A DNA stretch of 45,288 nucleotides, taken from NCBI GenBank assembly GCA_012960755.1, contig DUAT01000013.1, positions 1 to 45,288 on the forward strand. Reading direction: 5' to 3'. A program made the position numbers and the translations under genes. Positions 19,938 to 44,577 of the stretch are shown here, piece after piece (position 1 is the first letter of the stretch; each line of letters begins with the position of its first letter). Origin of the DNA: Gammaproteobacteria bacterium (lineage in GTDB: Bacteria; Pseudomonadota; Gammaproteobacteria; Pseudomonadales; Azotimanducaceae_A). The notes below the pieces were generated by a model, which worked only from the letters and a program-made list of their open reading frames with translations, was not told where the DNA came from and searched no databases.

Positions 19938-19976
19938 TGAAACACCCATCATCCCAAGGAAAAATGAGCCGACATC

Positions 19977-20696: not shown

Positions 20697-20748
20697 TGAT
20701 ACGGGTTCTCAAGGCCAGTGAAACCATATTTAACCTGTTCTCACAGCC

Positions 20749-21747: not shown

Positions 21748-21769
21748 TGGCAAAAGGACCAAACGCCCT

Positions 21770-29097: not shown

Positions 29098-29634
29098 AAT
29101 TATACCTTAACGATTCTGTGCTGAGTCACGTAGCCAATCTATCGTATTATCCCCAACTTCGCTGTTATTACTCGCTTAATACGACAGAATGTTACGATCC
29201 TGCGACCAAAGCGACGCTATGGACCTGCGCCTTGAACGTCGTCAGCGAACCTGGGGCCACTGACATTTAATTCTAAGAGACACTTTTCTGCATAGGGTAC
29301 CCCCTCTATCCTGCTAGTCGCAGGTTTTGCACCCTGCGCTTATTCCACTGTAGGTCTAGAACCAATCCTGATTTTCATTTGATTCCCTGGTAATCGTTTA
29401 TTTGCCCGACAGCAACAGATTGAATTTTATTTCGCCCAAGAAGGCGAATCAACCGGATTTTCGGAGTAACGGTCAAGTACCATAGTTGCAGATTTTCATT
29501 CAAGTTTAGGACACCGTGACGTTGTCTTCCCATTGAGGGTCAATGGCTGATTTTGACCGGAAGGCGTCGCTGTTTACTTCAAATCGAACACTAACTATGA
29601 TAATAGTTATATTCCTAATTTGCTTACTCCTAAC
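29098..29634. other. Divergent intergenic region between GH16 and BVMO genes
   Basis: About 540 bases separating the glucan locus from the oxidative region. It must hold the promoters for the GH16 gene (leftward) and the monooxygenase gene (rightward). I found no LacI-type palindrome like those at 9.97 and 14.6 kb, and no coding signal. Confidence 0.5.
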
Positions 29635-31458
29635 ATGCAAGATGTAATCAGCTTAATGCTCGGTGATATTGACTTTGATCCCGATGCCCTAAGGGCCAAA
29701 TATCTCGAAGAACGAGACAACCGCGTACGAGACGACTCAAATGACCAGTACGTTGAAGTGAAAGGCGATTTTTCCAGCTATGTCGACGATCCCTATGAGA
29801 AAGCTGTTGACAGAGCACCCCTTAATGACACTGTTGAAGTCGTCATCATCGGCGGCGGCTTTGGCGGTTTATTGCTAGGTGGCAGACTCCGTGAAGCAGG
29901 TTTTCAAGATATACGTATCATCGAAAAAGGCGGCGACTTCGGCGGGACCTGGTACTGGAATCGATATCCGGGCGCCATGTGTGATGTGGAGTCCTACTGC
30001 TATCTTCCGATGCTGGAGGAACTGAACTACATGCCCAAAGACAAGTATTCAGGTGCGCCAGAAATCATGCAGCACACGCAGAATATCGCCAGACATTACG
30101 GACTCTATGAAAACGCATGCCTGTCTACCAAGGTAACCGAACTCAGCTGGGATGAGAAAGAACAATTCTGGATCGTGACCACAGATCGCGGCGATCGGAT
30201 TTGTGCTCGCTTCGTGGCGATGGCTAACGGGCCGCTCAATAGACCAAAGCTACCTGGGATTCCTGGTATCAGTGATTTCAAAGGTCATACATTTCATACT
30301 AGCCGTTGGGATTATGAGTACACCGGCGGTGATTCCGGCGGTAACCTAACGAAACTCAAGGATAAACGAGTCGGGATCATCGGTACTGGCGCCACAGCTG
30401 TGCAGTGCATCCCACATCTAGGAGAGTGCTCGGGCGAACTCAAAGTTTTCCAACGGACCCCATCGTCTGTGGATGTCCGCAACAATCGCCCCACGGATGC
30501 CGGTTGGGCTGCTTCTCTGGAGAGCGGTTGGCAATACGAGAGGATGGACAACTTCAATGTTCTGGTCAGTGGTGGCGACCAGGATGAAGACCTAGTTGCC
30601 GACGGGTGGACCGACATCTTCCGAAACCTGACCGGTATAGCCGCCAAGCAAGCATCACGAAAGCTTGGCCGTCGGCTCACCGGCAAAGAAAAAGGCCTGC
30701 TCATGGTAATGGCCGATTACAAAAAGATGAACGGCGTAAGGGAACGTGTCGACGCCATTGTTAAAGATAAGAAAACGGCCGAGGCGCTAAAACCCTGGTA
30801 CCGTCAGTTTTGTAAGAGACCCTGTTTCCATGATGAGTATTTGCCCACGTTCAATCGAAAAAATGTTCATTTAATAGACACTAAAGGCAAGGGTGTTGAG
30901 CGAATTACAGAGAAGGGAGTGGTGGTCGACGGGATCGAACACGAACTCGATTGTCTTATATTTGCGACGGGCTTTGAAGTAGGCACGAGTTATACACGAC
31001 GAGCGGGGTATGACGTAATCGGTCGCGACAGCCAGAAGCTCAGTGACAAATGGTCAAACGGGCTCAAGACCTTGCACGGATTCACCAGCCACGGCTACCC
31101 CAACTGCTTCTTTCTTGGCTTCACTCAAGCCGCGGTGACCGTTAATGCCCCGCACGCGTTGAAAGAGCAGGCAATACAAATCGCTGCCATCATGACGGAA
31201 GCCCGCAATCGAGGTGCAAAAACCATCGAGGCGAGTGCCGAGGGTGAGCAGGGTTGGTTGGACGAGATCAAGCGCACCGCAAAGTATGGCGAGCGCTTTC
31301 GTGCTGAGTGCACGCCTGGCTATTACAACAATGAAGGTGAGTTAGATAACCCCCACGGCTTGCTCACCGGCGGCTATGGGGGCGGACCGATTAAGTTTTT
31401 CCGCATTCTCGAGCAATGGCGGGCGTCTGGTACCTTTGACGGAATCGAGTTCAGGTGA
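29635..31458 (+). CDS. Baeyer-Villiger-type flavin monooxygenase
   Basis: Likely FAD- and NADPH-dependent enzyme that inserts oxygen next to a ketone to give an ester or lactone. With ATG 29635 the product is 607 residues (a TTG five codons earlier is possible). The FAD Rossmann motif is GGGFGG (73-78), followed by GGTWYWNRYPGAMCDVES, a hallmark of this class. The BVMO fingerprint FKGHTFHTSRWD is at 215-226, and the NADPH site GTGATA at 250-255. The N-terminal extension of about 65 residues resembles the phenylacetone/cyclopentadecanone monooxygenase branch. The substrate cannot be read from sequence. The CuMMO operon and SDR nearby suggest a ketone derived from hydrocarbon oxidation. Confidence 0.93.
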   Translation: MQDVISLMLGDIDFDPDALRAKYLEERDNRVRDDSNDQYVEVKGDFSSYVDDPYEKAVDRAPLNDTVEVVIIGGGFGGLLLGGRLREAGFQDIRIIEKGGDFGGTWYWNRYPGAMCDVESYCYLPMLEELNYMPKDKYSGAPEIMQHTQNIARHYGLYENACLSTKVTELSWDEKEQFWIVTTDRGDRICARFVAMANGPLNRPKLPGIPGISDFKGHTFHTSRWDYEYTGGDSGGNLTKLKDKRVGIIGTGATAVQCIPHLGECSGELKVFQRTPSSVDVRNNRPTDAGWAASLESGWQYERMDNFNVLVSGGDQDEDLVADGWTDIFRNLTGIAAKQASRKLGRRLTGKEKGLLMVMADYKKMNGVRERVDAIVKDKKTAEALKPWYRQFCKRPCFHDEYLPTFNRKNVHLIDTKGKGVERITEKGVVVDGIEHELDCLIFATGFEVGTSYTRRAGYDVIGRDSQKLSDKWSNGLKTLHGFTSHGYPNCFFLGFTQAAVTVNAPHALKEQAIQIAAIMTEARNRGAKTIEASAEGEQGWLDEIKRTAKYGERFRAECTPGYYNNEGELDNPHGLLTGGYGGGPIKFFRILEQWRASGTFDGIEFR

Positions 31459-31887: not shown

Positions 31888-31902
31888 TGGAGGAAATATG
31901 AC

Positions 31903-32073
31903 ATGACAGCTGATCTGATTGAAACCAGTGACCGTGGTGTTTGCAGTATGAGCTTGAATCGTCCCGAAGTCGGCGGCGCAAAGAGAGGCAACGAGCGCTT
32001 CACGCTGGGGCAAAAAATTCCAGCGTTCATCATCAAGTTGGCCAACCTGCCAACCTGCCAACCTGGAGGATAA
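31903..32073 (+). pseudogene. Remnant of enoyl-CoA hydratase/isomerase gene start
   Basis: A strong ribosome binding site (GGAGGAA near 31888) precedes ATG 31903, whose first residues MTADLIETSDRGVCSMSLNR match the opening strand of crotonase-family enzymes (xVETxxRGVxxxxLNRPEV). After PEV the resemblance stops abruptly, and the frame continues through unrelated sequence and three 8-base repeats to a stop 57 codons from the start. A normal member is about 250-270 residues, so nearly the whole gene has been deleted. The retained start region lies directly upstream of the SDR gene. Confidence 0.7.
32041..32064. repeat. 8-bp tandem repeat GCCAACCT x3
   Basis: Three perfect head-to-tail copies of GCCAACCT abut the GGAGGA ribosome binding site of the SDR gene. 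The number of copies is open to slippage, but it would not change the distance between the ribosome binding site and the SDR start codon. Confidence 0.9.
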
Positions 32074-32077
32074 CCCA

Positions 32078-32923
32078 ATGAAAGACCTTAAGGGTAAGGT
32101 GGCGTTCGTCACAGGTGGCGCCAGCGGCATAGGCCTTGCGATGACACGGTCGTTTTCGGTCGCGGGCATGAAGGTCGCGATCACCGACATCGAACAAGCG
32201 GCACTCGATCGAGTAAAGGAAGCGTATATCGGATCAGAAGCCGAAGTGATCTACCTGAAAGTCGATGTGACCGACCGCGACGCAATGGAGCGGGCAGCCC
32301 GAGAAACCGAGGCCGCCTTTGGTAATGTGCACGTGGTCTGCAACAACGCCGGCGTTGCCGTCACAGGGCGAGTCCACAAAATGGATTACAAGGACTGGGA
32401 CTGGGTGATGGGTGTGAATCTGAATGGTGTTATCAACGGCGTGCAAACGTTCGTCAACCGCATCATGGCACACGGCGAAGGCGGCCACTTCGTGAACACA
32501 GCCTCGATGGCAGGGCAGATGCCGATTCCGAGTGGCAGCATCTACACCACCAGCAAATACGCTGTTGTCGGCATGTCGGAAGTGATGCGCAGAGATCTAG
32601 CCCGATACAACATCGGTGTATCAGTGCTGTGTCCGGGCGGAGTAACCACCAACGTCATACACTCAGGCCGCAATCGTCCGGCGAATATGCAACGCGACAA
32701 GGACAATTCGAAGTTGCGGACTATGGGCGGCTTGCAGGAGGCCGTCATGTCGGACATGCTCGATGCGTCTGTCATCGGTGACATGGTCGTAGCGGCAATT
32801 CGGGGGGACGACGCGTACATCTTCAGCCACCCTGGCCTGAAGTCGGTCGTCGACTTGCGCACCCAGGAGATCAACGAGTCATTTGCACGTTGGTCGCAAT
32901 ATAGAAAAGACCATGGGATCTAA
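32078..32923 (+). CDS. Short-chain dehydrogenase/reductase (SDR)
   Basis: Classical SDR of 281 residues, probably an NAD(P)-dependent alcohol dehydrogenase. The coenzyme motif TGGASGIG is at 12-19, NNAG at 89-92, catalytic S143, Y156 and K160 (YTTSK). D37 after the second strand (ITDIE) favours NAD over NADP. The start is secured by GGAGGA seven bases upstream. The C-terminal extension (GVTTNVIHSGRNRP onward) resembles SDRs found in steroid, terpene and alcohol degradation clusters. Its position between the BVMO and the CuMMO operon suggests oxidation of a secondary alcohol to a ketone (inference). Confidence 0.93.
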   Translation: MKDLKGKVAFVTGGASGIGLAMTRSFSVAGMKVAITDIEQAALDRVKEAYIGSEAEVIYLKVDVTDRDAMERAARETEAAFGNVHVVCNNAGVAVTGRVHKMDYKDWDWVMGVNLNGVINGVQTFVNRIMAHGEGGHFVNTASMAGQMPIPSGSIYTTSKYAVVGMSEVMRRDLARYNIGVSVLCPGGVTTNVIHSGRNRPANMQRDKDNSKLRTMGGLQEAVMSDMLDASVIGDMVVAAIRGDDAYIFSHPGLKSVVDLRTQEINESFARWSQYRKDHGI

Positions 32924-33441
32924 GCTAACGGCAGAAGGCAATGTCTGACATGTGTGTGACATCAACCCAAACAGAATCACCTAACCTTGTCTGCTAATAG
33001 CCACTTTTGCTAATTTAAACTGAAACGGAGGAATTGCAAAAAGTAAATGAAATTACCCGCTTGATTTCTATTCAGATAACGTGATGTGTGTACCTTATCT
33101 TAAATAAGATGTACACATAGTCGATCATCACTTGAATGAAGTTGCCACAAAAATGTGATTCCAGGTCATGAAGGTGGATCGATAGTTCCAAGTTTCAGGA
33201 TCTTGTTGCTTTAGTTTTGTAATACGCGTGGGTGGGACTGCATCGTGTACCTGCGGGTACTTTTGTAATCTTCAGAAAATGCTCTTTATAACGCCCGCCC
33301 ACCAAATCACGAGTGCTGTAAGCGAGCCTCTACTACGGGAAGTACGATGAGCGTGAGCTCTCTACATGTGCTAACTTGGCTGCTGCAGATACACAAGATG
33401 CAGACACAATGCATCATTTTGCTGTACGGGACACAACAACT
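32924..33441. other. Intergenic region upstream of MFS gene
   Basis: About 520 bases, AT-richer than the genes around it. The only structure that I can support is the large inverted repeat at 33087-33117. No coding sequence was recognised. Confidence 0.5.
33087..33117. promoter_or_regulatory. 31-bp inverted repeat, likely operator
   Basis: Outer arms TGTGTAC and GTACACA are perfect complements. Inside them CTTAT and ATAAG also pair, leaving the centre CTTAA and a 2-base offset. Two nested dyads of this size suggest a binding site for a dimeric regulator, for example of TetR or GntR type. It lies about 325 bases upstream of the MFS start. No regulator gene is nearby. Confidence 0.55.
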
Positions 33442-34860
33442 ATGAATAGTAAAGTCTTATCTCTGGCCGGCACCCCTGCGGCGAGTCCCCTTGGTTACTT
33501 CAGTTGGACATTTGGTCAGGGTGCACGTGACCCGTATTACATCATGGTCATTATCTACGTGTTCTATCCTTATTTTAGTAATACAGTGGTCGGTGATCCG
33601 GTAAAAGGTCAGGCCCTGATTGGTTACATTACGGCAGCAGCAGGCTTTGTACTGGCCTTGACCGCCCCTTTTTTGGGCGCAATTGCGGACAAGGATGGTC
33701 GCCGCAAACCCTGGGTGGTGGGCACGGTGCTGGTGATGACGATGGGCGCCTTTAGCCTGTGGTTTATCAAACCAGAAGGTCAGGGTTTGAGTCTTGGCGT
33801 GTCGCTGGCAATTTTGTTTGCCATCAAAATCTGCTTCACTATCTCAGAGGTATTCCACAACGCCATGTTGCCCTCTATCGCACCGATGAACCGGGTTGGT
33901 GTGATCTCCGGTCTGGCCTTTTCGTTAGGTAATGTCGGTGGGTTAATACTGATGTTATTTGTGCTAGTCGCATTTTCACTGCCCGGCACCCAGCCCTGGG
34001 CGTTTTTACCAGAAGTCCCATTGTTTGGCATTGACCAGGCAAGCCATGAACATAACCGTATCGTCGGCCCGATTGCAGGTGCATGGATGTTGGTGATGAC
34101 CCTGCCGATCTTGTTATTTACGCCCGATGGCAAAGCTTCACACTCGCCCATGTGGCAATTGGCCAAAGAAGGTGTGCTGGACGTATTCCAAACACTGAAA
34201 CATGTAAGACACTACGCCAATATTGCACGCTACCTGCTTGCCCGGATGTTCTTTATTGACGGCATGGTGGGCGTGCTTACATTTGGCGGCATCTATGCAT
34301 CTGGCACCTTTGGCTGGGACACCACCACACTGCTTATTTTTGGCTTGTGCACTAGCGCGTCGGCCATGTTCGGCGCGTACATGGGTGGGCGCCTTGACGA
34401 CCGCATTGGTTCCATTCTTGCACTGCAGATTGCCATTGGCACCAGCGCCCTTGTGTTGCTAACACTCGTATCAGTGCAGCCAGACACCATTTTGTATGTG
34501 ATTGAAGTGGGCTCTGAGCCCGTGTGGGACGCGCCTTACTTTGCATCATTACCTGAACTCTTTTACTTTGCGACAAATCAGGTATTCGCCATGTTTTTTG
34601 TGACCGGGTTGTCAGCATCCAGAACCCTGATGGCACGCATTTCCCCGCCAGAAATGGTAACCCAATTCTTCGGACTGTTTGCTTTGTCATCGACTGTCAC
34701 CGCATTTTTAGCGCCTTTGTTGGTCGCCACCGTCACCGACCTCTTTGAATCACAGCGCATTGGTTTTGCCTCGCTGGCTTCACTGATGATTATCGGCGCC
34801 GTGATGTTATTAAAGGTGAAGGAGGAGCAGGCGACGGTCGTGGGCACGGGGGAGTCTTGA
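33442..34860 (+). CDS. MFS transporter, UMF1/Atg22-like
   Basis: Integral membrane protein of about 472 residues with around 12 hydrophobic segments. The first loop GAIADKDGRRKPWVVG (after helix 2) is the MFS signature, and MGGRLDDRIGS marks the matching loop in the second half. The N-terminal block YFSWTFGQGARDPYY followed by an open helix resembles the UMF1/Atg22-like subfamily often annotated as 'MFS transporter' in degradation clusters. The start is uncertain: ATG 33442 or 33409, both in frame, neither with a good ribosome binding site. The substrate is unknown, though uptake of an organic acid or hydrocarbon-derived compound is possible. Confidence 0.85.
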   Translation: MNSKVLSLAGTPAASPLGYFSWTFGQGARDPYYIMVIIYVFYPYFSNTVVGDPVKGQALIGYITAAAGFVLALTAPFLGAIADKDGRRKPWVVGTVLVMTMGAFSLWFIKPEGQGLSLGVSLAILFAIKICFTISEVFHNAMLPSIAPMNRVGVISGLAFSLGNVGGLILMLFVLVAFSLPGTQPWAFLPEVPLFGIDQASHEHNRIVGPIAGAWMLVMTLPILLFTPDGKASHSPMWQLAKEGVLDVFQTLKHVRHYANIARYLLARMFFIDGMVGVLTFGGIYASGTFGWDTTTLLIFGLCTSASAMFGAYMGGRLDDRIGSILALQIAIGTSALVLLTLVSVQPDTILYVIEVGSEPVWDAPYFASLPELFYFATNQVFAMFFVTGLSASRTLMARISPPEMVTQFFGLFALSSTVTAFLAPLLVATVTDLFESQRIGFASLASLMIIGAVMLLKVKEEQATVVGTGES

Positions 34861-35271
34861 TGCATTCCATTTTATTCGCTTAGTCAGCCGCTATACAGAT
34901 TGTCCTAGCAGCGCTAGATTAAGTCAGGTCAAAGTCAGCAATCAAGCGGATGAATTTGTCAGTTACATGATAATCGGAGAGACATGAAGCGTCAGGTCGG
35001 CACCGTGAAGGGGACAGGAACAGGCAGCCCCGCTTGACTAAAGGGCCTCGGAATTCACTCACAATGACTTGCGCCAGCGGCACACACTTTATTCCCGAAC
35101 CTGTCACATCCAATTCCAGTGAAGACGACCCGAAGGCGGGGGCTTGGGGACAACAACACGCGCCAAAAACTTGATCAGCCTATGCACGGTTGTTGAATCA
35201 ACAACCTTGACTAACGACTGGCTAAGGATTGCTGTTACTGCACAAATTCGGGCCTGCCGCAGATTAGGTCA
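34861..35271. other. Convergent intergenic region between MFS and hydrolase genes
   Basis: About 410 bases between two genes that converge. I found no clear hairpin with a T-run and no credible gene. A short minus-strand ORF near 34919-35113 has no recognisable features and is not called. Confidence 0.5.
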
Positions 35272-36180
35272 CTAATGCCTTGACGCCTCAACGACTTCAC
35301 TGAAGAAGCCAATCAGGTCAACTGCGCGACCTGGCCAGTAAGAATGATTACCGGGCAGTTCACAGAAAACGGTCGGGGCTTGAGCGGCGCAGCCGGTATA
35401 TTCCCTGCAGCCTCTGTTGTTAGTAACGGCGGTCGTTTTGGAACACTGGTTGCAGTCTGCCCACCAGGCTGCTACCAGCTCGCCAAAGCCCGGAAAGTGA
35501 CTATCATTCTGATTGTGCATCAGCATCACAGCAGTCGGGTCCGGGCAGGCGAAGGCTGTCATATCAAGCCCCTGCATGCCCATCGCGCTTGGCCCTATGG
35601 CGCGCGGATATAGCCGCTGGTCTGACATAACAGCGAGTGCATTGGACACCGTTCCGCCATCAGAGTGACCAGTATAAAAAACGAGGGATGGTTCGATGCA
35701 CCATTGCTTAGTTACCGCATCGGGTATCCTCCCGAGCGATGCCAGGTTACTGATACTGAGCCCTATGCTATCGACATGGACAACAACAAACCCCCGCTCG
35801 GTCGCGGCACGGGTCAAACCCGTGAATCGTTCTGACATCATCTCGCTAAAACCCGACGGTGCCCAGACAACAAGTAAAGCATGACCAAAGTCGCTGCGAT
35901 AATTGCCGGGTGTCGTCACAGTGTAGGAAATCAAATCAGGGCTTTTTAGTGGCGCGTGATCTGCCACCCGGCCGATCGATGGGGCACAGACGGTAAGGTA
36001 GCTGTCTGGGTATTCAAAATCTACTGGTGATATCGACGCACTGTCATATAGATAAGATTCATTGATAAAAAGTACAAGCCCGGCCAGTCCGACGAAAAAC
36101 GACAGGTAAACTTTTGTCAACAACTTGAGACCGGAAAAATATTGACTGGCCCCGGAAATCAAACCACGGCTAGTGGCCAT
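35272..36180 (-). CDS. Membrane-anchored alpha/beta hydrolase (PHB depolymerase/esterase-like)
   Basis: Last gene of the CuMMO operon. Using ATG 36180 (302 residues, 11-base overlap with the cupredoxin gene), an N-terminal hydrophobic anchor (about 22-40) precedes an exported alpha/beta-hydrolase domain. The catalytic triad is visible: S173 in the elbow GHSDGG, D226 in NQNDSHFP and H279 in PGNHSYWPG. Six or more cysteines in the C-terminal third suggest disulfides. The closest families that I recognise are LpqC/PHB depolymerase and feruloyl-esterase-type enzymes. A periplasmic esterase next to an oxygenase operon could hydrolyse an ester product, for example from the nearby BVMO, but the BVMO lacks a signal peptide and would be cytoplasmic, so this link is tentative. 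Confidence 0.8.
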   Translation of the reverse strand: MATSRGLISGASQYFSGLKLLTKVYLSFFVGLAGLVLFINESYLYDSASISPVDFEYPDSYLTVCAPSIGRVADHAPLKSPDLISYTVTTPGNYRSDFGHALLVVWAPSGFSEMMSERFTGLTRAATERGFVVVHVDSIGLSISNLASLGRIPDAVTKQWCIEPSLVFYTGHSDGGTVSNALAVMSDQRLYPRAIGPSAMGMQGLDMTAFACPDPTAVMLMHNQNDSHFPGFGELVAAWWADCNQCSKTTAVTNNRGCREYTGCAAQAPTVFCELPGNHSYWPGRAVDLIGFFSEVVEASRH

Positions 36181-36868
36181 GACGTTTCTGTGACCAAACT
36201 GCCAACACCAGTGCAATTGCCATGCCTGCAGACAGGATCAATATCAAAAATGCTGGATTTTGGCGAACCGCATCTTTGCGGAAGGTCGCCGTTATGCCGG
36301 GGATACTCCACAAGTCGCCACTTCCAGTCCCCACAATGAGCTGGCCTTTCATGCCCTTTTCCATATGCTGGGCAACATCACAGTGCACCAGGTAGGTTCG
36401 ATCGTCTCCAGGCACAATAAATGTGCCTTCCAGGCTCTGACCACCAGCAACCTCAATATGGAACATTCCTTGATCGTACAAATACCTGGGCAAGCCGTGG
36501 ACCATCCATTGATGACGTATCTCATCATTGTTTCTAAACACAACGGTGATCCTACTGCAGGGCTCCACCCGCCACTCATGCTGACTCATTCCGAACACAT
36601 TAGCCGCGTAGGGCGTGGCGAACTCGACACCCGCTTCAACCAGAAACCGGTGTTCACGGCTGATATCACTACAGTCGTCCGGCAGGGTTTCCGAGTTCGC
36701 ATTCATCACCATGCCTGCCATCTGATTCTGATGCCTGCCGTGATGATTTGCATGCTCAACCGCTGCAGATTCAGGTTCACCATTACTGGTTTGTGCATCC
36801 ATTGAGACAGCAAGATTCAACAGCACCAGCATCATGCCAAACGATTTAATCGCGGCCAGGTTCTGCAT
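36170..36868 (-). CDS. Membrane-anchored cupredoxin with His/Met-rich stretch
   Basis: A 232-residue protein with a signal peptide (about 1-25), a metal-rich segment at 39-55 (four His and three Met within 17 residues), a single cupredoxin domain (about 80-182) and a C-terminal helix (about 205-224) that would hold it in the inner membrane facing the periplasm. Type 1 copper ligands are visible: H119 (IRHQWMVHG), C163, H168 and M173 in the HCDVAQHMEKGM motif. The start codon directly follows the multicopper oxidase stop (TGAATG). It probably passes electrons or copper between the multicopper oxidase and the monooxygenase. The exact role is unknown. Confidence 0.85.
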   Translation of the reverse strand: MQNLAAIKSFGMMLVLLNLAVSMDAQTSNGEPESAAVEHANHHGRHQNQMAGMVMNANSETLPDDCSDISREHRFLVEAGVEFATPYAANVFGMSQHEWRVEPCSRITVVFRNNDEIRHQWMVHGLPRYLYDQGMFHIEVAGGQSLEGTFIVPGDDRTYLVHCDVAQHMEKGMKGQLIVGTGSGDLWSIPGITATFRKDAVRQNPAFLILILSAGMAIALVLAVWSQKRHGH

Positions 36869-38560
36869 TCAAGAACGCCATCTGTTTATCATTGTCATGC
36901 CTATATTGAGAATTAAACCCAATACAAGTCCGCACAGGCCAGCCACAACAGCAAGACGGGCCTGTGCTGTGAAAGATCGCTCGACATCTGCGAATCGATG
37001 CTCGGGATCGTAACTCTGCCAGACCGGGATTTTTTTCCGGTAGTAGTCAGCGTCAAAATAAACCCCGAGATCAACACCCCGGGTATCAGGCCAGCCGTTG
37101 GCGAGCAGGAAACTTTCGTAGACAATTGCACTGACATTGCCGCCCGGACCAATTCCAGCTGTGGTGACGCCCTTCGGGTAGTGGTCATGCAACGGCCAGA
37201 TACCATCGCCATAGCTGTGCAAACCATCATTGGTCGTGTCCAGCTGCAGATCGAGGCGCTGGGCAGGTGCAAGCGACACGACATCACGGGTAATTCGTGC
37301 CTGTTCATTGTGTGCAACACCATCGTAATGGGTAATCGTGACCTTGTGGCCGTGAGTATGCAGCGCAACCGCCGCGCTACCACCATTCAGCACGCGAAGT
37401 TTTATCCGTTCATCAGGCTTGGTAACGATGAGCGATTCGCGCAAGGTATAAGGAAAAGACCGGCCATTCAGGGTGAAATAGTCCGCATCCGCACCTGGAT
37501 TGGACTGCCGATGCAGCGCCTTGGTTACGGTTCGAGGGTCATTACTCTTCTGCACCTGCTCTGACAGGCCTTTGTGAAGATTCTGGTAATGAAGATCGTA
37601 TTCCCTGTGGTAACTTTGCCTGCTCGTTTTCGAGCGGTATCTCACCAGACCCGCACCAGTGTTAAAGGTCTGGACCCAGTTGTTCGGCCTGTTTTCCTCA
37701 ATCACAAACATGCCCTGCAGGCCCATGGTGACATGCACCTGTGGTTGCACGTGACAATGATAGAACATCGTCCCTGTCTGTCTCGGCTGCATATTATAGG
37801 TCCGCGCCGAGCCCGGCATGACAGGTATTTCACTGGTGGCAGGCACACCATCGTTGCCTTCACCGTCTGCGTCCAGAAATGGATGATCGACGCCATGAAA
37901 GTGCAATGTGTGGGGCATGTAATGAGAATTCTCAAGCGTTATGGAAACCGTATCACCCTGTTCGACTCTAATCACGGGTGACGGTAGCCGCAGCCCGTCA
38001 TAGGCGATATTTGAAATGAAGTTTTCCGTCGACATACCGGATGATTTCGGTGCAAATACCCACAGTCCCGGATTGATTCCAGGGGCGATTTCGAACTGGG
38101 TAGTGAGCGCTTCCTGGTCTGGTGAAGTCCCGTTCAACTCGATGACTTCAAGCCGAATATGAATCTCATCCGGATCGCCATCACCATCGAGGTCACGGCC
38201 CTTGGTAACGGCATCGGCAGCCAGGCGCGTCCGCATTAGCAGGTCACTGGAAACCTGATTGGTACCCTTGACGAAAGCAGCAACTGCATAGGGGTTATCG
38301 GCAGCGCAAAGTGGCGAAGCATCAATTTCAATCCCAGCGATGATTTGCGCCGGGCGCCAGCCCTTAAGATCGGGCGCACAGAATTCCGGCGCTTCAGCGG
38401 GCGACGTAACACGGGATTTGTCAGGGGGACTATAAGTCGTTGTACCGAGCCAATCGGCATAAAACAATCGCCAGCTTCCTGGATACCAATCGGCGGGCAA
38501 AAGTAACAGTATCAGCAGCACCAACCCCACTATCGCCAGCCATTGCGAGCGGATGTTCAA
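36869..38560 (-). CDS. Membrane-bound multicopper oxidase with type 1 site in the first domain
   Basis: A 563-residue copper oxidase with hydrophobic helices at both ends (about 7-22 and 535-555). Four His-X-His motifs for a trinuclear copper centre are visible: HFH (220-222), HCH (268-270), HTH (401-403) and HDH (458-460). H217, C269, H276 and M279 would supply a type 1 copper, so it sits in the first cupredoxin domain. The last domain has HDH and lacks the cysteine, unlike three-domain laccases. A calcium-like DLDGDGDPDE occurs near 123. Start is TTG with GAGGAG eight bases upstream, overlapping the end of the preceding gene. It may return electrons to oxygen, oxidise Cu(I), or act as a copper chaperone for the monooxygenase. 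Confidence 0.85.
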   Translation of the reverse strand: MNIRSQWLAIVGLVLLILLLLPADWYPGSWRLFYADWLGTTTYSPPDKSRVTSPAEAPEFCAPDLKGWRPAQIIAGIEIDASPLCAADNPYAVAAFVKGTNQVSSDLLMRTRLAADAVTKGRDLDGDGDPDEIHIRLEVIELNGTSPDQEALTTQFEIAPGINPGLWVFAPKSSGMSTENFISNIAYDGLRLPSPVIRVEQGDTVSITLENSHYMPHTLHFHGVDHPFLDADGEGNDGVPATSEIPVMPGSARTYNMQPRQTGTMFYHCHVQPQVHVTMGLQGMFVIEENRPNNWVQTFNTGAGLVRYRSKTSRQSYHREYDLHYQNLHKGLSEQVQKSNDPRTVTKALHRQSNPGADADYFTLNGRSFPYTLRESLIVTKPDERIKLRVLNGGSAAVALHTHGHKVTITHYDGVAHNEQARITRDVVSLAPAQRLDLQLDTTNDGLHSYGDGIWPLHDHYPKGVTTAGIGPGGNVSAIVYESFLLANGWPDTRGVDLGVYFDADYYRKKIPVWQSYDPEHRFADVERSFTAQARLAVVAGLCGLVLGLILNIGMTMINRWRS

Positions 38561-38565
38561 ATCAG

Positions 38566-39213
38566 CTACTCCTCAAAGGCAAAGAAACGATTGCGACCGG
38601 TCATATATATCACGATTCCGCAGAAGCCGAACAACAGGACGTAATACAGTAGATAACGAGTATAATTTAGCTCACCAACGCGAAACGGGAATATCGCCTG
38701 ATAACGCTCTCCCGCTTCCGGGTGTAATGCTGTGACGATACCGATGTAACCTCCGCCAGTGGTGAACCGATATCGGGTAGTTAAAACTCCATTAGAGTAA
38801 TATTGGGGCCCTGCATAGTGGATGGTTGACTGGCTGATCGCATCCTGGTCACCAAGGTCGTCCGCGGTGACATTGAGTCCCAGATTATTGATATCTCGAA
38901 CAATACGAAAGTCGACCTGCATGTCTCTTAGTTCATCACTGATAAAGTCCAGGACAAATACACTGTTGCCAACAACCGGGATATCTTCACAAAATTCCTG
39001 GGTTGCGCGTTGCTGAGGTATATATCCAGTGAAGTGTGCCTTGTAACGATCAATTCTTATGATGCAGACATCATCCTCGATCGCAACCCCGCCATGGCCG
39101 TAAGATGGTGGGCACGCCATAGCCAGCAATAGAGCGATTAATACTTCAGTAGTTCTGGCCACGACATTTTCTCTCGATAGCCTGGTAAGTCGAATCAATA
39201 AACGTCTCTTCAA
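38566..39213 (-). CDS. Membrane-anchored periplasmic protein in the pmoD position
   Basis: A protein of up to 215 residues with an N-terminal signal (VLIALLLAMACPPSYG) whose mature part would begin HGG. A periplasmic domain and one C-terminal helix (about 186-205) follow. Two cysteines occur in the domain (DDVCIIRI, EFCEDIP). It occupies the place of pmoD/amoD, which in methane and ammonia oxidisers encodes a membrane-anchored copper-binding protein, but I see no clear CxxxM-type PmoD signature. I call it by position and topology only. The start is either TTG 39213, overlapping the pmoB stop (TTGA), or GTG 39162, which has GAGAGAAAA upstream and gives a cleaner signal peptide. Confidence 0.7.
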   Translation of the reverse strand: MKRRLLIRLTRLSRENVVARTTEVLIALLLAMACPPSYGHGGVAIEDDVCIIRIDRYKAHFTGYIPQQRATQEFCEDIPVVGNSVFVLDFISDELRDMQVDFRIVRDINNLGLNVTADDLGDQDAISQSTIHYAGPQYYSNGVLTTRYRFTTGGGYIGIVTALHPEAGERYQAIFPFRVGELNYTRYLLYYVLLFGFCGIVIYMTGRNRFFAFEE

Positions 39214-40487
39214 AAAAAGCTCGGTACGATCGCACCGCCCAATTCCTGAAAGTACTGATTACCAACCTCGTCCTGGTAGAACAACAGACCGGCAAAGCGA
39301 CTATCTGGTGCATGTATTAATCCGGTCATACGCTGAGTTTCCCAAAGAGAATCCGACGCGATCAATTCAACGACTACCGACTGGCCGGGCTCTATGACTG
39401 GGACGGAAACTTCAAGCCCCTTTTCGGCCACCATTTCTTCGCCGGGATAGACCGGCATCGTTTTCGTTGCCAGGGGGTTCATAAACCTGATATTAGCCGT
39501 ACTGAATTCAGTCAACACAAGCGGCGAGCTTCCGTTGTTAGTCATCCGCGCTTCCATTGACAGGCTTCTGCCGCCCAGTTGATATGATGCGCTGCTCAAT
39601 TCGACATTGAGGGGCCCCACTGGAATATCCGTTCCCTGAACTGAGACCTTGCCGGTCTGTAGAGGGATGGTCAGTGGGTATCGTATTTCAGTATAAAGAT
39701 AACCGGTCAGAATCAAGGTAAGGGTAACGGTAAAAAAACCTGCAGTCACTACGAAGTCCCGCCGCGTAATGATGTCGTTGGGATTACCTCCGGATTCCAT
39801 CGCCGCTTTTGTTTTTACGAATCTTGGAACAAACAGTTCCCGGCGAATCAGCCAGTAAACCAGATAAGCCAGGCCGAGTAGCATCCAGATCGCATGCCAG
39901 ATCTTTACGGTCGTCATACCGTATGACTCGAGATCGATAACATTGCCCTGCATTGTTTTAATCTCATTGACGAATGCGCCAGAGCCTTCATTATCCTGCA
40001 CCTGAACCCAGGTTCCAGCACCGACCAGGGGGCCTACATCCCTGACATTGAGCAATGGGTGCAGATGATAGCGGCCAGCTATCCGCGCCCGGAGCTCAAT
40101 TTCAAACGAGTACAGCTTGCCCTTAACAAGAGAAGTGGACCGAATCATCGGTACACCGTTAATAGATGATCGCAGTCGTATAAAGGTCGGCCCCGGTACG
40201 CCGACATTCAAATAGACGGCATCTTCCACGCCGGGTAGGTGGTCCGGCCAATATTCAGAAGGCGTAAACTTACCGGTAATGGTCACGAGATCCCCCACCC
40301 TGACATCTGTCTGGTGAACCTGCGTATCAAACCAATGCACTGTTCTCATGCGCATGCTGGCAAGCTGGGCTCGTTCACCATGGGCTTCGACATCGGAACC
40401 AAAGGCCAGCCAAAGCACACCGATCATGGCGCCATTTATGACAAAGCTCACGGCACGGTTCATAGCAAAAGTCATAACAGCTCGCAT
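39210..40487 (-). CDS. pmoB: Copper membrane monooxygenase subunit B (PmoB/AmoB family)
   Basis: Copper-bearing periplasmic subunit of a CuMMO. From ATG 40487 the protein has 425 residues (M. capsulatus PmoB 414). The signal peptide ends VEA, so the mature protein would begin with H36 (HGERAQ), as in PmoB. Ligands of the known copper site are conserved: H36, H141 and H143 (GRYHLHP), matching H33, H137 and H139. H51 (TVHWFD) matches H48, while the partner H72 is replaced by Thr in KFTPSE. Two transmembrane helices separate the two cupredoxin-like domains, and LRFMNP/GLLFYQDEVG end-blocks agree with PmoB. The frame stays open up to 40619, but that stretch overlaps pmoA and is not PmoB-like. Confidence 0.92.
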   Translation of the reverse strand: MRAVMTFAMNRAVSFVINGAMIGVLWLAFGSDVEAHGERAQLASMRMRTVHWFDTQVHQTDVRVGDLVTITGKFTPSEYWPDHLPGVEDAVYLNVGVPGPTFIRLRSSINGVPMIRSTSLVKGKLYSFEIELRARIAGRYHLHPLLNVRDVGPLVGAGTWVQVQDNEGSGAFVNEIKTMQGNVIDLESYGMTTVKIWHAIWMLLGLAYLVYWLIRRELFVPRFVKTKAAMESGGNPNDIITRRDFVVTAGFFTVTLTLILTGYLYTEIRYPLTIPLQTGKVSVQGTDIPVGPLNVELSSASYQLGGRSLSMEARMTNNGSSPLVLTEFSTANIRFMNPLATKTMPVYPGEEMVAEKGLEVSVPVIEPGQSVVVELIASDSLWETQRMTGLIHAPDSRFAGLLFYQDEVGNQYFQELGGAIVPSFF

Positions 40488-40524
40488 GGGAAAACGGCCT
40501 GGCCATTTGAACCGATTGGTCCGC

Positions 40525-41259
40525 TCATACAAGTCGCCGGACGAATACCGATGCTCGATCGATCGCCAACCCCAACAATAGAAAGATGCCAAATACCAGG
40601 CTGCCGACGAATCCGGCAAATACGGCTGTCAAGGGCGTTACCGTGCCGCCAAAAGTTCTCAATGTGGATTCTTCTATGATCCTCACATATTCAGGCGTTG
40701 TCGTTCGGATGTATTGAAACCCCATGAGATCGGCAACAGAGTGCAGCGTACCCGCATATTCGACAGGAACCTTATAGGCTGCAATGATCGGCCAATTCAA
40801 GGGGTAAACAAGCATGCCCACCATATAGGCACCAAAAACCGAGGTCAGTAACAGGCTTCGAGTCATCAGCAAAGTAGCGTCGAGCAGAATGCCCAGGCCA
40901 ATATAAGTGGACGGAAAAGTAAACGAGAATGGGAAATTTGCGAACTCGACAAAATTGTAATAGCGGCTCAACCAGGAAAATAGCGCCAACATGAACGTAA
41001 TGGTGGTTCCGATCACAGGAAGCCTGAACCGGGTCCAGGTCGTATAGGTAAAAGCCCCCATCAGCATCAGCAGAGAGACAGGCGCGACCAGGGGCCACCA
41101 GCGCCGATCTCGCCAGTCAATCCAGTAGTCCCAGTCTCCAGCCGTCAAGGAGAAATGCAGCATGACTGAAAGGCCAAGAAAGCTGAACAGGACGAAAATC
41201 ACCACGGCATCCAGACGCAGGTAATACTTGTTTAGTTCTCGGGAAATATCTGTATTCAT
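40525..41259 (-). CDS. pmoA: Copper membrane monooxygenase subunit A (PmoA/AmoA family)
   Basis: Integral membrane subunit of 244 residues (M. capsulatus PmoA 247). Hallmark blocks are GDWDYWIDWRDRRWW near residue 36, the helix with WLSRYYNFVEFANFPFSFTFPS, YPLNWPIIAAYKVPVEY, and near the C-terminus QYIRTTTPEYVRIIEESTLRTFG, all aligned with PmoA. Several exchanges relative to methanotroph sequences (for example FANFPFSF where methanotrophs have YFPINF) suggest a divergent branch. An AAGAGA ribosome binding site supports ATG 41259. Its stop is followed 36 bases later by the pmoB start. Subunit A is the usual phylogenetic marker, so a tree would decide the likely substrate class. Confidence 0.94.
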   Translation of the reverse strand: MNTDISRELNKYYLRLDAVVIFVLFSFLGLSVMLHFSLTAGDWDYWIDWRDRRWWPLVAPVSLLMLMGAFTYTTWTRFRLPVIGTTITFMLALFSWLSRYYNFVEFANFPFSFTFPSTYIGLGILLDATLLMTRSLLLTSVFGAYMVGMLVYPLNWPIIAAYKVPVEYAGTLHSVADLMGFQYIRTTTPEYVRIIEESTLRTFGGTVTPLTAVFAGFVGSLVFGIFLLLGLAIDRASVFVRRLV

Positions 41260-41350
41260 AATGTCTCTTTCGACATCAATTACTAAATCAGGCTAGTCAC
41301 AAGCAAACCGGACATCGCGATCCTGGCACCCTTGTCACACAAGAACCGAT

Positions 41351-42172
41351 TCAGACCGCCTTGGCAGCGTTGTTTCTTACATTTTCTTCAGCCACGATCG
41401 GAATCAGTTTCGCCATCCGTTCGACCACCTGTACCACCAACGGAACCAGGGCAAAAAAGGCCCACCCCAGCAACACGAAACCGTAATGTATCGGTGCGGC
41501 AAACAACTCTTCGGCATAGAAAAAAGTATGGCCCCATTCATTAAACCCATAGTTCGGCATGATCATGAAAACGCCGGTCACCACGATTACAAACGGTACC
41601 GAGATTCGATTCATATACATGGGCAAGCGGGTATGCGCCCAGGCGAATGTAGCCACCAGCAAACAGGTCAGAAGGGGAACTGAAAAATAGAAGAGTAAAA
41701 TATGAGTCGGTGTGAAATCTGTATCTCTGATGGTAACCTGATGCCAGGCCGCATCTGCTTCGACCGTCATGAAGGCTAGAGGCGCCGCCCAGACAGCAAT
41801 CACTGCAAACATGGTCAATAACACGAAATAACGATCAAGCTCCACTTTAGGTGTAATGACAGCAGCGTCTTTCTCTCTGGTCAGCCAGATATAGAGCGTT
41901 GATACCACGCCGATCAGGGCTACGAAAGCCAATTCGCCATAAAGTATTGGCATCCAGATCTGTTGGAACTCAGGCTCATAAAAATCGAGCCCGACGGAAA
42001 AAGCCAGGGTTTCAAGCACCGAACGGGAAATCAGCACCAGGGCAACCAGCACCAGAGCGATTAAACCCAGTAGTCTTTTAGGCTCAAGAATCCACGCCAG
42101 AATTTCGCTGTGGAAAGGTCTTTGAATGACATTACCTTCCAGACGAATATCATCACCAGTCATATCACTCAT
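41351..42172 (-). CDS. pmoC: Copper membrane monooxygenase subunit C (PmoC/AmoC family)
   Basis: First gene of the CuMMO operon. I choose ATG 42172 (273 residues), because AAAAGGA lies six bases upstream. The TTG two codons earlier is less likely. Copper-site residues of PmoC are intact: D140, H144 and H157 in the block DAAWHQVTIRDTDFTPTH, and the second-site residues N211, H215 and H229 in NEWGHTFFYAEELFAAPIH. These are the best conserved regions of the family, and their spacing matches M. capsulatus PmoC exactly. About six hydrophobic helices are visible. PmoC is now widely regarded as a likely location of the active site. Confidence 0.95.
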   Translation of the reverse strand: MSDMTGDDIRLEGNVIQRPFHSEILAWILEPKRLLGLIALVLVALVLISRSVLETLAFSVGLDFYEPEFQQIWMPILYGELAFVALIGVVSTLYIWLTREKDAAVITPKVELDRYFVLLTMFAVIAVWAAPLAFMTVEADAAWHQVTIRDTDFTPTHILLFYFSVPLLTCLLVATFAWAHTRLPMYMNRISVPFVIVVTGVFMIMPNYGFNEWGHTFFYAEELFAAPIHYGFVLLGWAFFALVPLVVQVVERMAKLIPIVAEENVRNNAAKAV

Positions 42173-42864
42173 ATTCAATCCTTTTTTGGCCCTGGACTAT
42201 TATTGGTTGAACGGCCATCAGTTAGCTCACAAATCAACTGATAGATTTGCCACTTGCCTCCAAATATAAGCTAAACCAGACGTCTTTTCCATCCCCAGGC
42301 GTCTTTTCAATACAAGGCATAATGTGCAGCCGCCAGTGGCCATTGAATGGTCGTGACCAGCTCACTGAACCATCCCGGCAACACTGTCTGCTGGCGGAGT
42401 TGATCACGAAAACGAAACATAAGCTTCAGCCGATAATCGCAGAATAGGAACGGATACCCACAGGCATAAAGAACAGGTCTAACAGCTCACCGCAGGTACC
42501 ACTGGGCTCACCTGTGGCAACGCATTCACCAGCACTTCTTTACTATCGATGGGATCCCACAAGTGGTTGAACTGAACGGCAACCCGGGCGATGTTTATTT
42601 TACGAATATGACCGTACTGCATGCCCTGGCTCAATATAAACACTAGGAGCCGAGGCATAGCAACGCGACAACATTAAGTGTAGCGTTCAAAGTAACTCCA
42701 TAGCGTGACTTTTATCTACGTGATCTTTATCTACGTGACCTTTATCTACGTGACCTTTATCAAAAAGCACATCCCGCAACGCGCTGTTCGTGTGTATTAT
42801 TGTTTACTACGACTCGGCTTGACCAACCAAAATCGAACCTCAACATGTAACAGGATTATAGACC
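42173..42864. other. Divergent regulatory region between pmoC and amidase genes
   Basis: About 690 bases that should carry the promoters of the CuMMO operon (leftward) and the amidase gene (rightward). A 15-bp tandem repeat lies near the amidase side. GCGTCTTTTC-like direct repeats occur near 42281-42310. No gene was recognised. Confidence 0.55.
42708..42767. repeat. 15-bp tandem repeat, three full copies plus a partial one
   Basis: Three units of consensus ACCTTTATCTACGTG (with one or two changes) are followed by a partial fourth. The array ends about 100 bases upstream of the amidase start. Repeats of this length next to a promoter often are regulator binding sites, and the ATCTACGTG core is strictly kept. 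Confidence 0.85.
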
Positions 42865-44577
42865 ATGGCATTATCTGACGAGAAACTTCTCACTCTGCCC
42901 ATCACCCATCTTGTTGCAGCACAAATCCGCGGCGAGGTGAGCGCATTGCAGATTGTCGAATGTTACCTGCGGCGCGCAAGGCAGATCCACGCGGCCACCA
43001 ACTGCTTTACCTGCTGGGTCCCCGAAGCGCTTGATGAAGCAAAGCGCTGCGATCAATACCTGTTTGAATCGGGTGGCAAGACACTGGGCCGTCTTCACGG
43101 TATCCCCTGCACCATCAAGGATCACTACGCCATGAAAGGTCTGCCGGTGACCATGGGTCTTAAGACCTTGCGGGAACGAATGCAACAATCCGGTGGGTCA
43201 CGCCATGATGCCGTTGCCGTTCTGGCCCTGCGAGATGCAGGGGCAATTCCCATTGCCAAGACTAATATGACCCAACAGGGTGAAACATGGGGGGGCGGTA
43301 ATCCGGCTTATGGCGATACCCTAAACCCCTGGAACACGCTCAGGACAACGGGCGGTTCGAGCTCCGGTGAAGGTGCCTCGGTTGGCAGCAGCGCCTCGGT
43401 TTTTGGCATCGGCTCCGATGTCGGCGGGTCTGTACGCTGTCCAGCTGCCTTCTGTGGGGTAGCGGGTCTAAAACCGACGGCACAAAGGTTTTCCTTTGCC
43501 TGGGACGATGGCCGAACGATCTTAAACCACCCGGGTGACTATGGCATTCTCGCAACCGGTGGGCCGCTTGCCAAAAATGTTTCGGACCTCGCCGAGGTCC
43601 TTAAGGCTTGCTGGGCAGACGGCAGTCCGATGCTGAACATCGACACCCGCATGCCGCCTATCCCATTCAATGAGGAAATCCTGGCCGCAACCAGGCCACT
43701 AACGATTGGTTATCACGTGACTGGAGGTTATACCCATCCAAACCCCTGCCCAACAACCGTTCGCGCTACAGAGCGAGTAGTCGACGCATTACGAGCCGCC
43801 GGGCACCATCTTGTGCCGTTTGATCCGTCATCGGTGATCCCCTTCAGTGATCTGCATCCTGTGCTGCTTGCCCAGCATGGAGTGGGAATTCGAGCTGAAG
43901 CTACGCCACCGGCAAAACCGAAAAAAGAACGCACCGGTAATTACAGCAGCACGAGCACCGATGCTACAATTGATACCATCCATCCGGACCTTGCCGCCAT
44001 GTCGGCAACCGCGCAAAGCCCTGGAAGCCTCCTGCCGGTAGCGACCAGCATCACCGAATACCATGCCATCATTGCCGCCCGGGATCGACAACGGGATACA
44101 TTGAACAGGAACTGGAAGCAACTCGGGCTCGACCTGCTGATCTGTCCGGCATGGGCATTCCCTGCACCACCGGTTGAACAAGTGCGGAATCTTTCACCCG
44201 CTGTTTGGACCACAGCGGTTTGGAACTACTTCGATATGCCTGCGGGCGTCGTCCCGGCAGGCAGAGTCACAGGCAAAGATCTGGAAGAACTGTGGGACAT
44301 TCCGCTCGATTCACCACTGATTGATGCAGACTTAGTAAAGGCTTGCCATCGATCCCGCGAAGGCTCAGAAGGCATGCCCGTTGCAGTGCAGGTGATCGGC
44401 CAGCCCTGGCGTGAAGAACTTGTTCTGCGCGGCATGCTTGAGATAGAACGAACAATCATGCAATCGAATGATGGACTCGGATCAGGTCATTCCAGCTTGA
44501 ATCCGGTGCCTCGGCGCTCACCTGAAATGGGTGACCAACCCGTTTGGATTGATAAAACGCAGGAAGATCACAAATAA
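42865..44577 (+). CDS. Amidase-signature enzyme (FAAH-like)
   Basis: Hydrolyses an amide bond, substrate unknown. The 570-residue protein shows the amidase signature. The Ser-cisSer-Lys triad is K85 (CTIKDHYAM), S165 (GGSSSGEG) and S189 (SDVGGSVRCPAAFCG), with the same 24-residue spacing between the two serines as in fatty acid amide hydrolase. The SSSGEGA segment follows the FAAH form rather than that of GatA, and no GatB or GatC gene is near, so a role in tRNA amidation is excluded. It starts 690 bases from pmoC in the opposite direction. No signal peptide is seen. It may deal with fatty or aryl amides, and any link to the CuMMO operon is open. Confidence 0.92.
   Translation: MALSDEKLLTLPITHLVAAQIRGEVSALQIVECYLRRARQIHAATNCFTCWVPEALDEAKRCDQYLFESGGKTLGRLHGIPCTIKDHYAMKGLPVTMGLKTLRERMQQSGGSRHDAVAVLALRDAGAIPIAKTNMTQQGETWGGGNPAYGDTLNPWNTLRTTGGSSSGEGASVGSSASVFGIGSDVGGSVRCPAAFCGVAGLKPTAQRFSFAWDDGRTILNHPGDYGILATGGPLAKNVSDLAEVLKACWADGSPMLNIDTRMPPIPFNEEILAATRPLTIGYHVTGGYTHPNPCPTTVRATERVVDALRAAGHHLVPFDPSSVIPFSDLHPVLLAQHGVGIRAEATPPAKPKKERTGNYSSTSTDATIDTIHPDLAAMSATAQSPGSLLPVATSITEYHAIIAARDRQRDTLNRNWKQLGLDLLICPAWAFPAPPVEQVRNLSPAVWTTAVWNYFDMPAGVVPAGRVTGKDLEELWDIPLDSPLIDADLVKACHRSREGSEGMPVAVQVIGQPWREELVLRGMLEIERTIMQSNDGLGSGHSSLNPVPRRSPEMGDQPVWIDKTQEDHK

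What the first reader, a model, noticed from the sequence alone, without database searches (positions are those of the whole stretch)
39210..42172. Divergent copper membrane monooxygenase (PmoCAB-type) in a polysaccharide-degrading bacterium
Seen: three genes in pmoC-pmoA-pmoB order with the PmoB site (H36, H141, H143), the PmoC site (D140, H144, H157) and the second PmoC site (N211, H215, H229) all conserved. Known: CuMMOs oxidise methane, ammonia or C2-C4 hydrocarbons, and non-methanotrophic relatives exist in a few marine gammaproteobacteria. Inferred: with a beta-glucan locus and no methanol dehydrogenase or C1 genes in view, this is probably a short-chain alkane/alkene monooxygenase. A laminarin degrader that also oxidises gaseous hydrocarbons would be an unusual combination.
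Basis: partly seen in the sequence, partly recalled or inferred. Interest (0 to 1): 0.9.

Follow-up and report, generated by a model that had tools for sequence, protein, structure and literature searches.

The report
Acquired hydrocarbon-type copper membrane monooxygenase cassette
A marine bacterium equipped to eat algal sugars also carries, in one compact gene block missing from its close relatives, a copper enzyme of the kind that oxidises small hydrocarbons rather than methane or ammonia, probably picked up from other bacteria.

Summary
In detail: window 39210-42172 (minus strand) encodes intact PmoC, PmoA and PmoB with all nine copper ligands named. The cluster is longer than described: a PmoD homolog, a multicopper oxidase, a membrane cupredoxin and an alpha/beta-hydrolase follow (35272-39213). 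A PmoA tree puts it in a hydrocarbon-type clade with Polaromonas, Hydrogenophaga and Solimonas; grouping with methane pMMO or the one AOB row is rejected. Its nearest relatives are a marine Porticoccaceae-type subclade. A congener has the flanking genes joined, with this 7.9-kb block missing; 0 of 15 congeners have PmoA and 0 of 120 sampled family members PmoB (positive control 8 of 8). Best reading: a horizontally acquired hydrocarbon monooxygenase in a beta-glucan degrader. The C2-C4 substrate is not established. A paper known from a citation and recall links a Porticoccaceae pmo clade to methylated cycloalkanes; 9 of 9 subclade genomes searched carry a cyclohexanecarboxylate-CoA-ligase-like gene, all below the curated cut-off. 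Clade-wide, the adjacent PmoD has an HGG motif and Cx9HxnC instead of the CuA motif.

The parts
   Evidence: AmoC PF04896 219.8 bits; six Cu ligands
40525..41259 (-). pmoA-like, CuMMO subunit A
   Evidence: AMO PF02461 230.9 bits; trees
39210..40487 (-). pmoB-like, CuMMO subunit B; the longest ORF starts at 40619 but the likely start is the ATG at 40487
   Evidence: PF04744 381 bits; H36, H141, H143
38566..39213 (-). PmoD homolog: hydrophobic leader, HGG motif, Cx9HxnC, C-terminal helix; overlaps the pmoB stop by 4 bp
   Evidence: 6cpd PmoD E 4.6e-13 by sequence; model pLDDT 86, Foldseek to 6cpd E 3.5e-13, TMt 0.87; motif
36869..38560 (-). multicopper oxidase (best PDB match a two-domain laccase)
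   Evidence: PF07732 5e-24 and PF07731 2e-19; 2zwn E 1.4e-32
36170..36868 (-). cupredoxin with a C-terminal hydrophobic stretch; H119, C163, H168 (15 of 15 rows) and M173 (14 of 15)
   Evidence: PF07731 5.7e-06; alignment. Reading these as a type-1 copper site and a membrane anchor is by eye
35272..36216 (-). alpha/beta-hydrolase-like protein (GHSDGG) with an N-terminal hydrophobic stretch, last gene of the block; true start probably downstream of 36216
   Evidence: weak NCBIfam match to PHA-depolymerase type, 30.4 bits against cut-off 150, no Pfam match; 51% homolog at the same place in L015; structure model too weak to use
34882..42776 (.). 7.9-kb block absent from congener G001, where 13 bp lie between the aligned flanks
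   Evidence: blastn against G001:C7, sequences at the junctions
42704..42761 (.). 15-bp tandem array (3.9 copies) 15 bp inside the right junction
29620..31458 (+). Baeyer-Villiger monooxygenase (cyclic-ketone type by best matches); neighbour, not part of the acquired block
   Evidence: 5mq6 E 4.8e-128; PtlE-like NCBIfam 811 bits, cut-off 1100; relatives in 15 of 15 congeners
32078..32923 (+). short-chain dehydrogenase; neighbour
   Evidence: PF00106 2.3e-50
33376..34860 (+). MFS/ATG22-like transporter, left flank of the block
   Evidence: PF11700 2.4e-36; 92% in G001
42865..44577 (+). amidase, right flank of the block
   Evidence: PF01425 3.2e-85; 96% in G001

Best explanation
This is a complete hydrocarbon-type copper membrane monooxygenase (pHMO) gene cluster, pmoCAB-pmoD-MCO-cupredoxin-hydrolase, acquired as a unit by a marine, beta-glucan-degrading gammaproteobacterium. 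Shown: gene identity, ligands, tree position, and absence from the relatives searched. Inferred: PmoCAB hydroxylates a small hydrophobic hydrocarbon at the PmoC copper site. The PmoD homolog, multicopper oxidase and cupredoxin load or protect copper in the periplasm. The alcohol product goes to quinoprotein or SDR alcohol dehydrogenases, and then through acid/CoA steps, or through ketone, BVMO and ester or lactone hydrolysis. My preferred substrates are cyclic or branched C5-C8 hydrocarbons such as methylcycloalkanes (about 0.4), then C2-C4 alkanes or alkenes (about 0.25).
For: Pfam and ligands. PmoA tree: window + L015 100/99, 16-row marine clade 100/100, 39-row hydrocarbon-type clade 100/100, apart from M. 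capsulatus-like, 20Z-like and AOB rows (anchors). Concatenated tree agrees; grouping window + L015 with methane pMMO rejected (AU p 0.00017), and with the single AOB row (p 4e-50). Missing block in G001 and absence elsewhere: positive control 8 of 8. Same 7-gene order as L015. Comamonadaceae-type loci sit beside PQQ-ADH, aldehyde dehydrogenase and acyl-CoA synthetase. Cyclohexanecarboxylate-CoA-ligase-like gene (622-695 bits, cut-off 792) in 9 of 9 marine-clade genomes searched (of 15 loci) against 1 of 4 other carriers and 0 of 1 for G001. Cyclic-ketone-type BVMO next door.
Against: No activity data. The window's assembly is not held, so downstream genes in the same cell are unknown. The AmoB equivalog cut-off is passed (443 against 336), but it is also passed by 7 of 7 other hydrocarbon-type PmoB tested (447-547 bits), so it does not discriminate. 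The ligase is below its cut-off in 14 of 14 genomes and only 251 bits in G001, so the host may lack that route. The BVMO is inherited in the genus without CuMMO, so its neighbourhood is not evidence of a joint pathway. Insertion in the window is not distinguished from deletion in G001. Composition gives no sign of recent transfer. The trees warn of long branches meeting, and the AOB outgroup is one long row.
Confidence: 0.75

Rival explanations
1. The enzyme is a gaseous C2-C4 alkane or alkene monooxygenase, like the group X pHMOs and Haliea ETY strains.
For: It shares the 39-row clade with Polaromonas and relatives, genera that I know from citations and recall as alkane-utilising (Rochman 2020, title seen). 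Haliea ETY strains grow on ethylene and have pmoA-like genes (PMC4036023 passages).
Against: The window lies in a separate subclade on a long stem (1.08) whose members are Porticoccaceae-type. No Haliea, group X or actinobacterial reference sequence was knowingly in my trees.
Confidence: 0.25
2. It is a methane or ammonia monooxygenase with an unusual sequence.
For: PDB relatives are pMMO and AMO with similar scores; the AmoB NCBIfam cut-off is passed.
Against: Both trees; AU tests against grouping with methane rows and with the one AOB row; five of six pMMO/AMO equivalog cut-offs are missed; the AmoB pass is shared by 7 of 7 other hydrocarbon-type PmoB.
Confidence: 0.06
3. It oxidises a non-hydrocarbon such as a ketone or terpenoid, feeding the host's expanded BVMO pathways; PMO3 of Methylacidiphilum is an acetone monooxygenase.
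For: PMC8630023 passages; 4-15 matches (some of them fragments) per congener to the BVMO query; PtlE-like BVMO beside the block.
Against: No sequence link to PMO3 was tested; BVMOs occur in congeners without CuMMO.
Confidence: 0.13
4. The block is an assembly or binning artefact (chimeric contig).
For: The window's own assembly is not available to check.
Against: It sits inside backbone that matches G001 in order on both sides. The 90% PmoA cluster is listed on 13 contigs, the longest 116,580 bases.
Confidence: 0.03

Closest known systems
CuMMO of L015 (Gammaproteobacteria bacterium UWMA-0258)
   Same: PmoA 84%, PmoB 75%, PmoC 73%; same seven-gene order to the hydrolase
   Different: Different flanks (cyclohexanecarboxylate-CoA-ligase-like, AraC, MMPL-type, DUF1329); no zwf match in that genome
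Porticoccaceae-type marine CuMMOs (L001-L014; probably the pmo clade of Ca. Reddybacter, recalled)
   Same: One clade with L015 and the window, 100/100. Over L001-L015: PmoD in 14 of 15 loci, MCO in 12 of 15, cupredoxin in 11 of 15
   Different: PmoA 62-65% identical; of the 15 loci the hydrolase gene was found only in L015 (several contigs end early); zwf found in 0 of 6 genomes searched
CuMMOs of Polaromonas, Rhodoferax, Hydrogenophaga, Solimonas (alkane use from citations and recall)
   Same: Same 39-row clade; same HGG/Cx9H PmoD
   Different: PmoA about 51%; PQQ-ADH, aldehyde dehydrogenase and acyl-CoA synthetase beside most Comamonadaceae loci; no MCO found there (L016 ends 1.4 kb after pmoA)
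Methane pMMO (Methylococcus capsulatus, 1yew/3rgb)
   Same: Subunits, gene order, all copper ligands
   Different: PmoA about 43%; outside the clade; pMMO equivalog cut-offs missed
PmoD of Methylocystis Rockwell (6cpd)
   Same: Fold, two conserved Cys, a conserved His
   Different: Lacks the Met of the Cx7MxHxnC CuA motif; has a conserved HGG motif

Membership tests
CuMMO superfamily | Homologs of all three subunits in C-A-B order | tested here: met
CuMMO superfamily | PmoB and PmoC copper ligands | tested here: met
   43 of 43 PmoC rows and 47 of 47 PmoB rows
Methane pMMO | Groups with methanotroph PmoA/B/C | tested here: not met
   (AU p 0.00017); TIGR03078/79/80 cut-offs missed
Methane pMMO | Methanol dehydrogenase and C1 pathway in the genome | not testable with these tools
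   own assembly not held; sister G001 has two PQQ-dehydrogenases over the cut-off of the methanol/ethanol subfamily, 724 and 738 aa
Bacterial AMO | Groups with AOB AMO | tested here: not met
   apart; AU p 4e-50; only one AOB row, on a long branch
Bacterial AMO | AmoA/B/C equivalog cut-offs | tested here: inconclusive
   AmoA 240.5<290 and AmoC 238.3<319 missed, AmoB 443>336 passed; AmoB is passed by 7 of 7 other hydrocarbon-type PmoB too
Bacterial AMO | hao in the genome | not tested
   own assembly not held
Hydrocarbon-type CuMMO (pHMO) | Groups with CuMMOs of alkane-utilising bacteria | tested here: met
   39-row clade 100/100 with Polaromonas etc.; their alkane use is from citations and recall
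Hydrocarbon-type CuMMO (pHMO) | Oxidises C2 or larger hydrocarbons | not testable with these tools
   needs an assay
Porticoccaceae (Ca. Reddybacter) pmo clade | Groups with the published Reddybacter sequences | tested here: inconclusive
   groups with Porticoccaceae-labelled MAGs; the paper is not held and no sequence so labelled was found
PmoD, CuA-forming class | Cx7MxHxnC | tested here: not met
   Met position is K/R/Q/S in 32 of 32 rows; motif from PMC6189053 passages
PmoD family at large | Homology to 6cpd, two conserved Cys, C-terminal helix | tested here: met

The most novel reading that the evidence does not exclude
A transferable seven-gene CuMMO cassette gives polysaccharide-degrading marine bacteria the power to hydroxylate cyclic or branched hydrocarbons. 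It is served by a PmoD of a new copper-site class (N-terminal His from HGG plus Cx9HxnC, no CuA) that works with a multicopper oxidase and a cupredoxin to charge the enzyme.
Probability: 0.3. Interest if true: 0.7.

Novelty: new member of a known kind. Interest (0 to 1): 0.5.

Why it matters
CuMMO hosts outside methanotrophs and nitrifiers are still being mapped. A missing-block site between two close relatives offers a natural with/without pair to test what a CuMMO adds to an algal-sugar degrader. The PmoD variant, found beside pmoB through most of the hydrocarbon-type loci, offers a comparison with the CuA-type PmoD, whose role remained to be determined according to PMC6189053 (passages).

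Tried and rejected
Methane or ammonia oxidation: disfavoured by the trees and AU tests. The AmoB cut-off pass, a result against my reading, was checked on 7 other hydrocarbon-type PmoB: 7 of 7 pass it (and 2 of 7, L021 and L027, also pass TIGR03079), so it does not discriminate. BVMO-SDR as part of the acquired unit: rejected. BVMO relatives at 57-61% occur in at least 10 of 15 congeners; in 8 congeners (G003, G004, G007, G008, G009, G012, G013, G015) a BVMO match lies about 3-11 kb from the same MFS gene, those of G007 and G013 being fragments. G001 keeps an alignable stretch (window 32877-33004, 77%) that starts inside the 3' end of the SDR, which suggests a deletion in G001. Foreign composition: GC within the range of the backbone; codon fit is low only for pmoD and the hydrolase, and a backbone gene (LytTR) is as low. 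Hydrolase structure: mean pLDDT 57 from 3 sequences, not used. A fragment upstream of the amidase that looked to me like a phytanoyl-CoA dioxygenase end gave no Pfam match and is dropped. G001's full-length PQQ enzyme is nearest the glucose type, not methanol, below all cut-offs. L015's two crotonases do not reach the badI cut-off.

Limits: the trees lack actinobacterial HMO, Haliea, SAR324 and archaeal sequences, as far as names tell. Seven rows were dropped before (L022, L023, L046, L047, L059, L060, L064: repeats of genomes or near-identical copies). Before six were excluded (L004, L033, L055, L061, L062, L063), and four had not all three subunits (L048, L053, L056, L057). PF04744 in the family was a sample of 120. 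The 92% identity to G001 counts only blastn blocks above 90%. Taxonomy rests on zwf hits named Porticoccaceae (70-74%; others there are named Pseudomonadales, Gammaproteobacteria, Proteobacteria and Kineobactrum); the family was not proven. No signal-peptide or membrane predictor was run.
Full report
What is there. The minus strand from 42172 down to 39210 encodes PmoC, PmoA and PmoB. Closely spaced genes continue on the same strand: a PmoD homolog (38566-39213; 6cpd E 4.6e-13; model pLDDT 86 and Foldseek match to 6cpd E 3.5e-13), a multicopper oxidase (36869-38560), a cupredoxin (36170-36868) and an alpha/beta-hydrolase-like gene (35272-36216). That they are one transcript is inferred.

Host. 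The window carries GH3, GH17, GH16, a TonB receptor, a LacI regulator and Entner-Doudoroff genes. Its zwf is nearest to MAGs named Porticoccaceae among the named hits (70-74%; two closer clusters without organism name at 87%). The window's own assembly is not held. The nearest held genome, G001, shares 24% of sampled 31-mers and is 92.2% identical over the 13.9 kb of blastn blocks above 90%. The six marine-clade carrier genomes searched (L015, L002, L008, L009, L010, L012) gave no zwf match (0 of 6); of four other carriers, L030 and L028 gave none, L032 and L027 did at 44-45%. So the window's host differs in sugar metabolism from its nearest fellow carriers.

Which CuMMO. In a PmoA tree of 47 rows the window pairs with L015 (100/99) inside a 16-row marine clade (100/100), inside a 39-row clade (100/100) with Polaromonas, Hydrogenophaga, Rhodoferax, Solimonas and Sinimarinibacterium. 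Rows 99% like M. capsulatus and 20Z and 93% like an AMO structure (anchors) fall outside. A concatenated tree of 37 rows agrees. AU tests reject window + L015 with three methane rows (p 0.00017) and with the single AOB row (p 4e-50). Both trees warn of long branches meeting. Five of six NCBIfam pMMO/AMO cut-offs are missed; AmoB is passed (443 against 336), but 7 of 7 other hydrocarbon-type PmoB pass it too.

Acquisition. In G001 the aligned flanks at the MFS and amidase side are 13 bp apart where the window has 34882-42776. PF02461 is absent from 15 of 15 congeners, from 22 of 22 other family members, and present in 2 of 21 other order members searched. PF04744 is absent from 120 of 120 sampled family members, 89 of them at least 90% complete and at most 5% contaminated, and rang in 8 of 8 known carriers. 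Arrival by transfer is the simplest reading, but a loss in G001 of an earlier acquisition is not excluded. No integrase or transposase family was matched among the 28 ORFs scanned. A 15-bp tandem array lies just inside the right junction. The second gap in G001 (29221-32876, BVMO and SDR) looks like a deletion in G001.

Gene-cluster conservation among the 33 genome loci. Marine clade without the window: pmoCAB 15 of 15, PmoD 14 of 15 (the miss is at a contig end), MCO 12 of 15, cupredoxin 11 of 15 (some misses at contig ends), hydrolase 1 of 15. Others: pmoCAB 18 of 18, PmoD 16 of 18, MCO 3 of 18, cupredoxin 2 of 18, hydrolase 3 of 18 (there upstream of pmoC).

PmoD. All 30 readable pmo-linked PmoD rows, some of them near-identical, have HGG directly after the hydrophobic leader, and the Met of the CuA motif is replaced in 32 of 32 rows, giving Cx9HxnC. 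Of the 32, L042 is not pmo-linked and L016 is masked at HGG. A wider alignment of 38, chosen from the 120 listed hits, keeps C50, H60 and C75 invariant and H40 in at least 90%. PMC6189053 (passages) reports that CuA formation is confined to Cx7MxHxnC PmoDs and that Cx9HxnC PmoDs bind copper without it. A mature N-terminal His is my inference. The stand-alone PmoD-MCO-cupredoxin set in G001 (L042) has GGG in place of HGG, and no PF02461 or PF04744 match was found in G001.

Substrate. [quoted passage not shown] From recall, its abstract names a novel pmo clade. Nine of nine marine-clade genomes searched (of 15 loci) carry a cyclohexanecarboxylate-CoA-ligase-like protein at 622-695 bits (cut-off 792, reached in 0 of 14 genomes, so not members by that model). 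Among other carriers 1 of 4 does (G058), and G001 reaches only 251. In L015 that gene lies upstream of pmoC, one gene away. The window has a cyclic-ketone-type BVMO, an SDR and a hydrolase nearby, but the BVMO belongs to the genus and not to the block. I therefore rank cyclic or branched C5-C8 hydrocarbons first, at only about 0.4.

Papers. Passages only: PMC4036023, PMC12510462, PMC6215863, PMC8941013, PMC9213486, PMC8630023, PMC8371827, PMC6189053, PMC13390413. PMC8371827, in the passages seen, reports laminarin loci and pMMO genes in different North Sea gammaproteobacterial groups. Searches for laminarin with particulate methane monooxygenase and Gammaproteobacteria, CuMMO with alkane (25 of 35 listed), copper membrane monooxygenase with Porticoccaceae, pHMO with short-chain alkane, marine and Gammaproteobacteria and Porticoccaceae with methane monooxygenase and hydrocarbon listed no paper whose title or abstract start describes this combination; the library lacks most subscription journals.

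Verdict. Real, correctly seen, an acquired member of a known enzyme kind in an unusual host, with a longer gene cluster than described and a substrate still open.

Noticed in passing
L042 (G001:C33), about 7713-10773: A PmoD-like gene, multicopper oxidase and cupredoxin stand together with no CuMMO found in that genome, beside genes that by eye look like P450, Rieske oxygenase, SDR and CoA ligase: the copper module is separable from the monooxygenase.
   Followed up: partly
all 15 congeners: Four to fifteen matches per genome (some fragments) to the BVMO query, an expanded Baeyer-Villiger set, in 8 genomes with one copy a few kb from the same MFS gene.
   Followed up: partly
window 18366-23254: Two tryptophan-halogenase-family proteins with SapC and a cupin-8 gene beside a large TonB receptor in the beta-glucan locus.
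   Followed up: no
window 23468-26425: A 985-aa protein with no Pfam match whose DNA aligns to its G001 counterpart in several shifted registers, that is, internal repeats.
   Followed up: no
window 42704-42761: 15-bp tandem repeat directly beside the block's right junction.
   Followed up: partly
L001, L002, L005, L008-L012, L014, L015: An MMPL-type gene in 10 loci and a DUF1329-type gene in four of them (L002, L008, L012, L015) lie near the pmo cluster of the marine clade (clusters; Pfam run on L008 and L015 members only).
   Followed up: partly
G053 and G058, G196, G308 and G402: Genomes with two different PmoA-family genes each.
   Followed up: no
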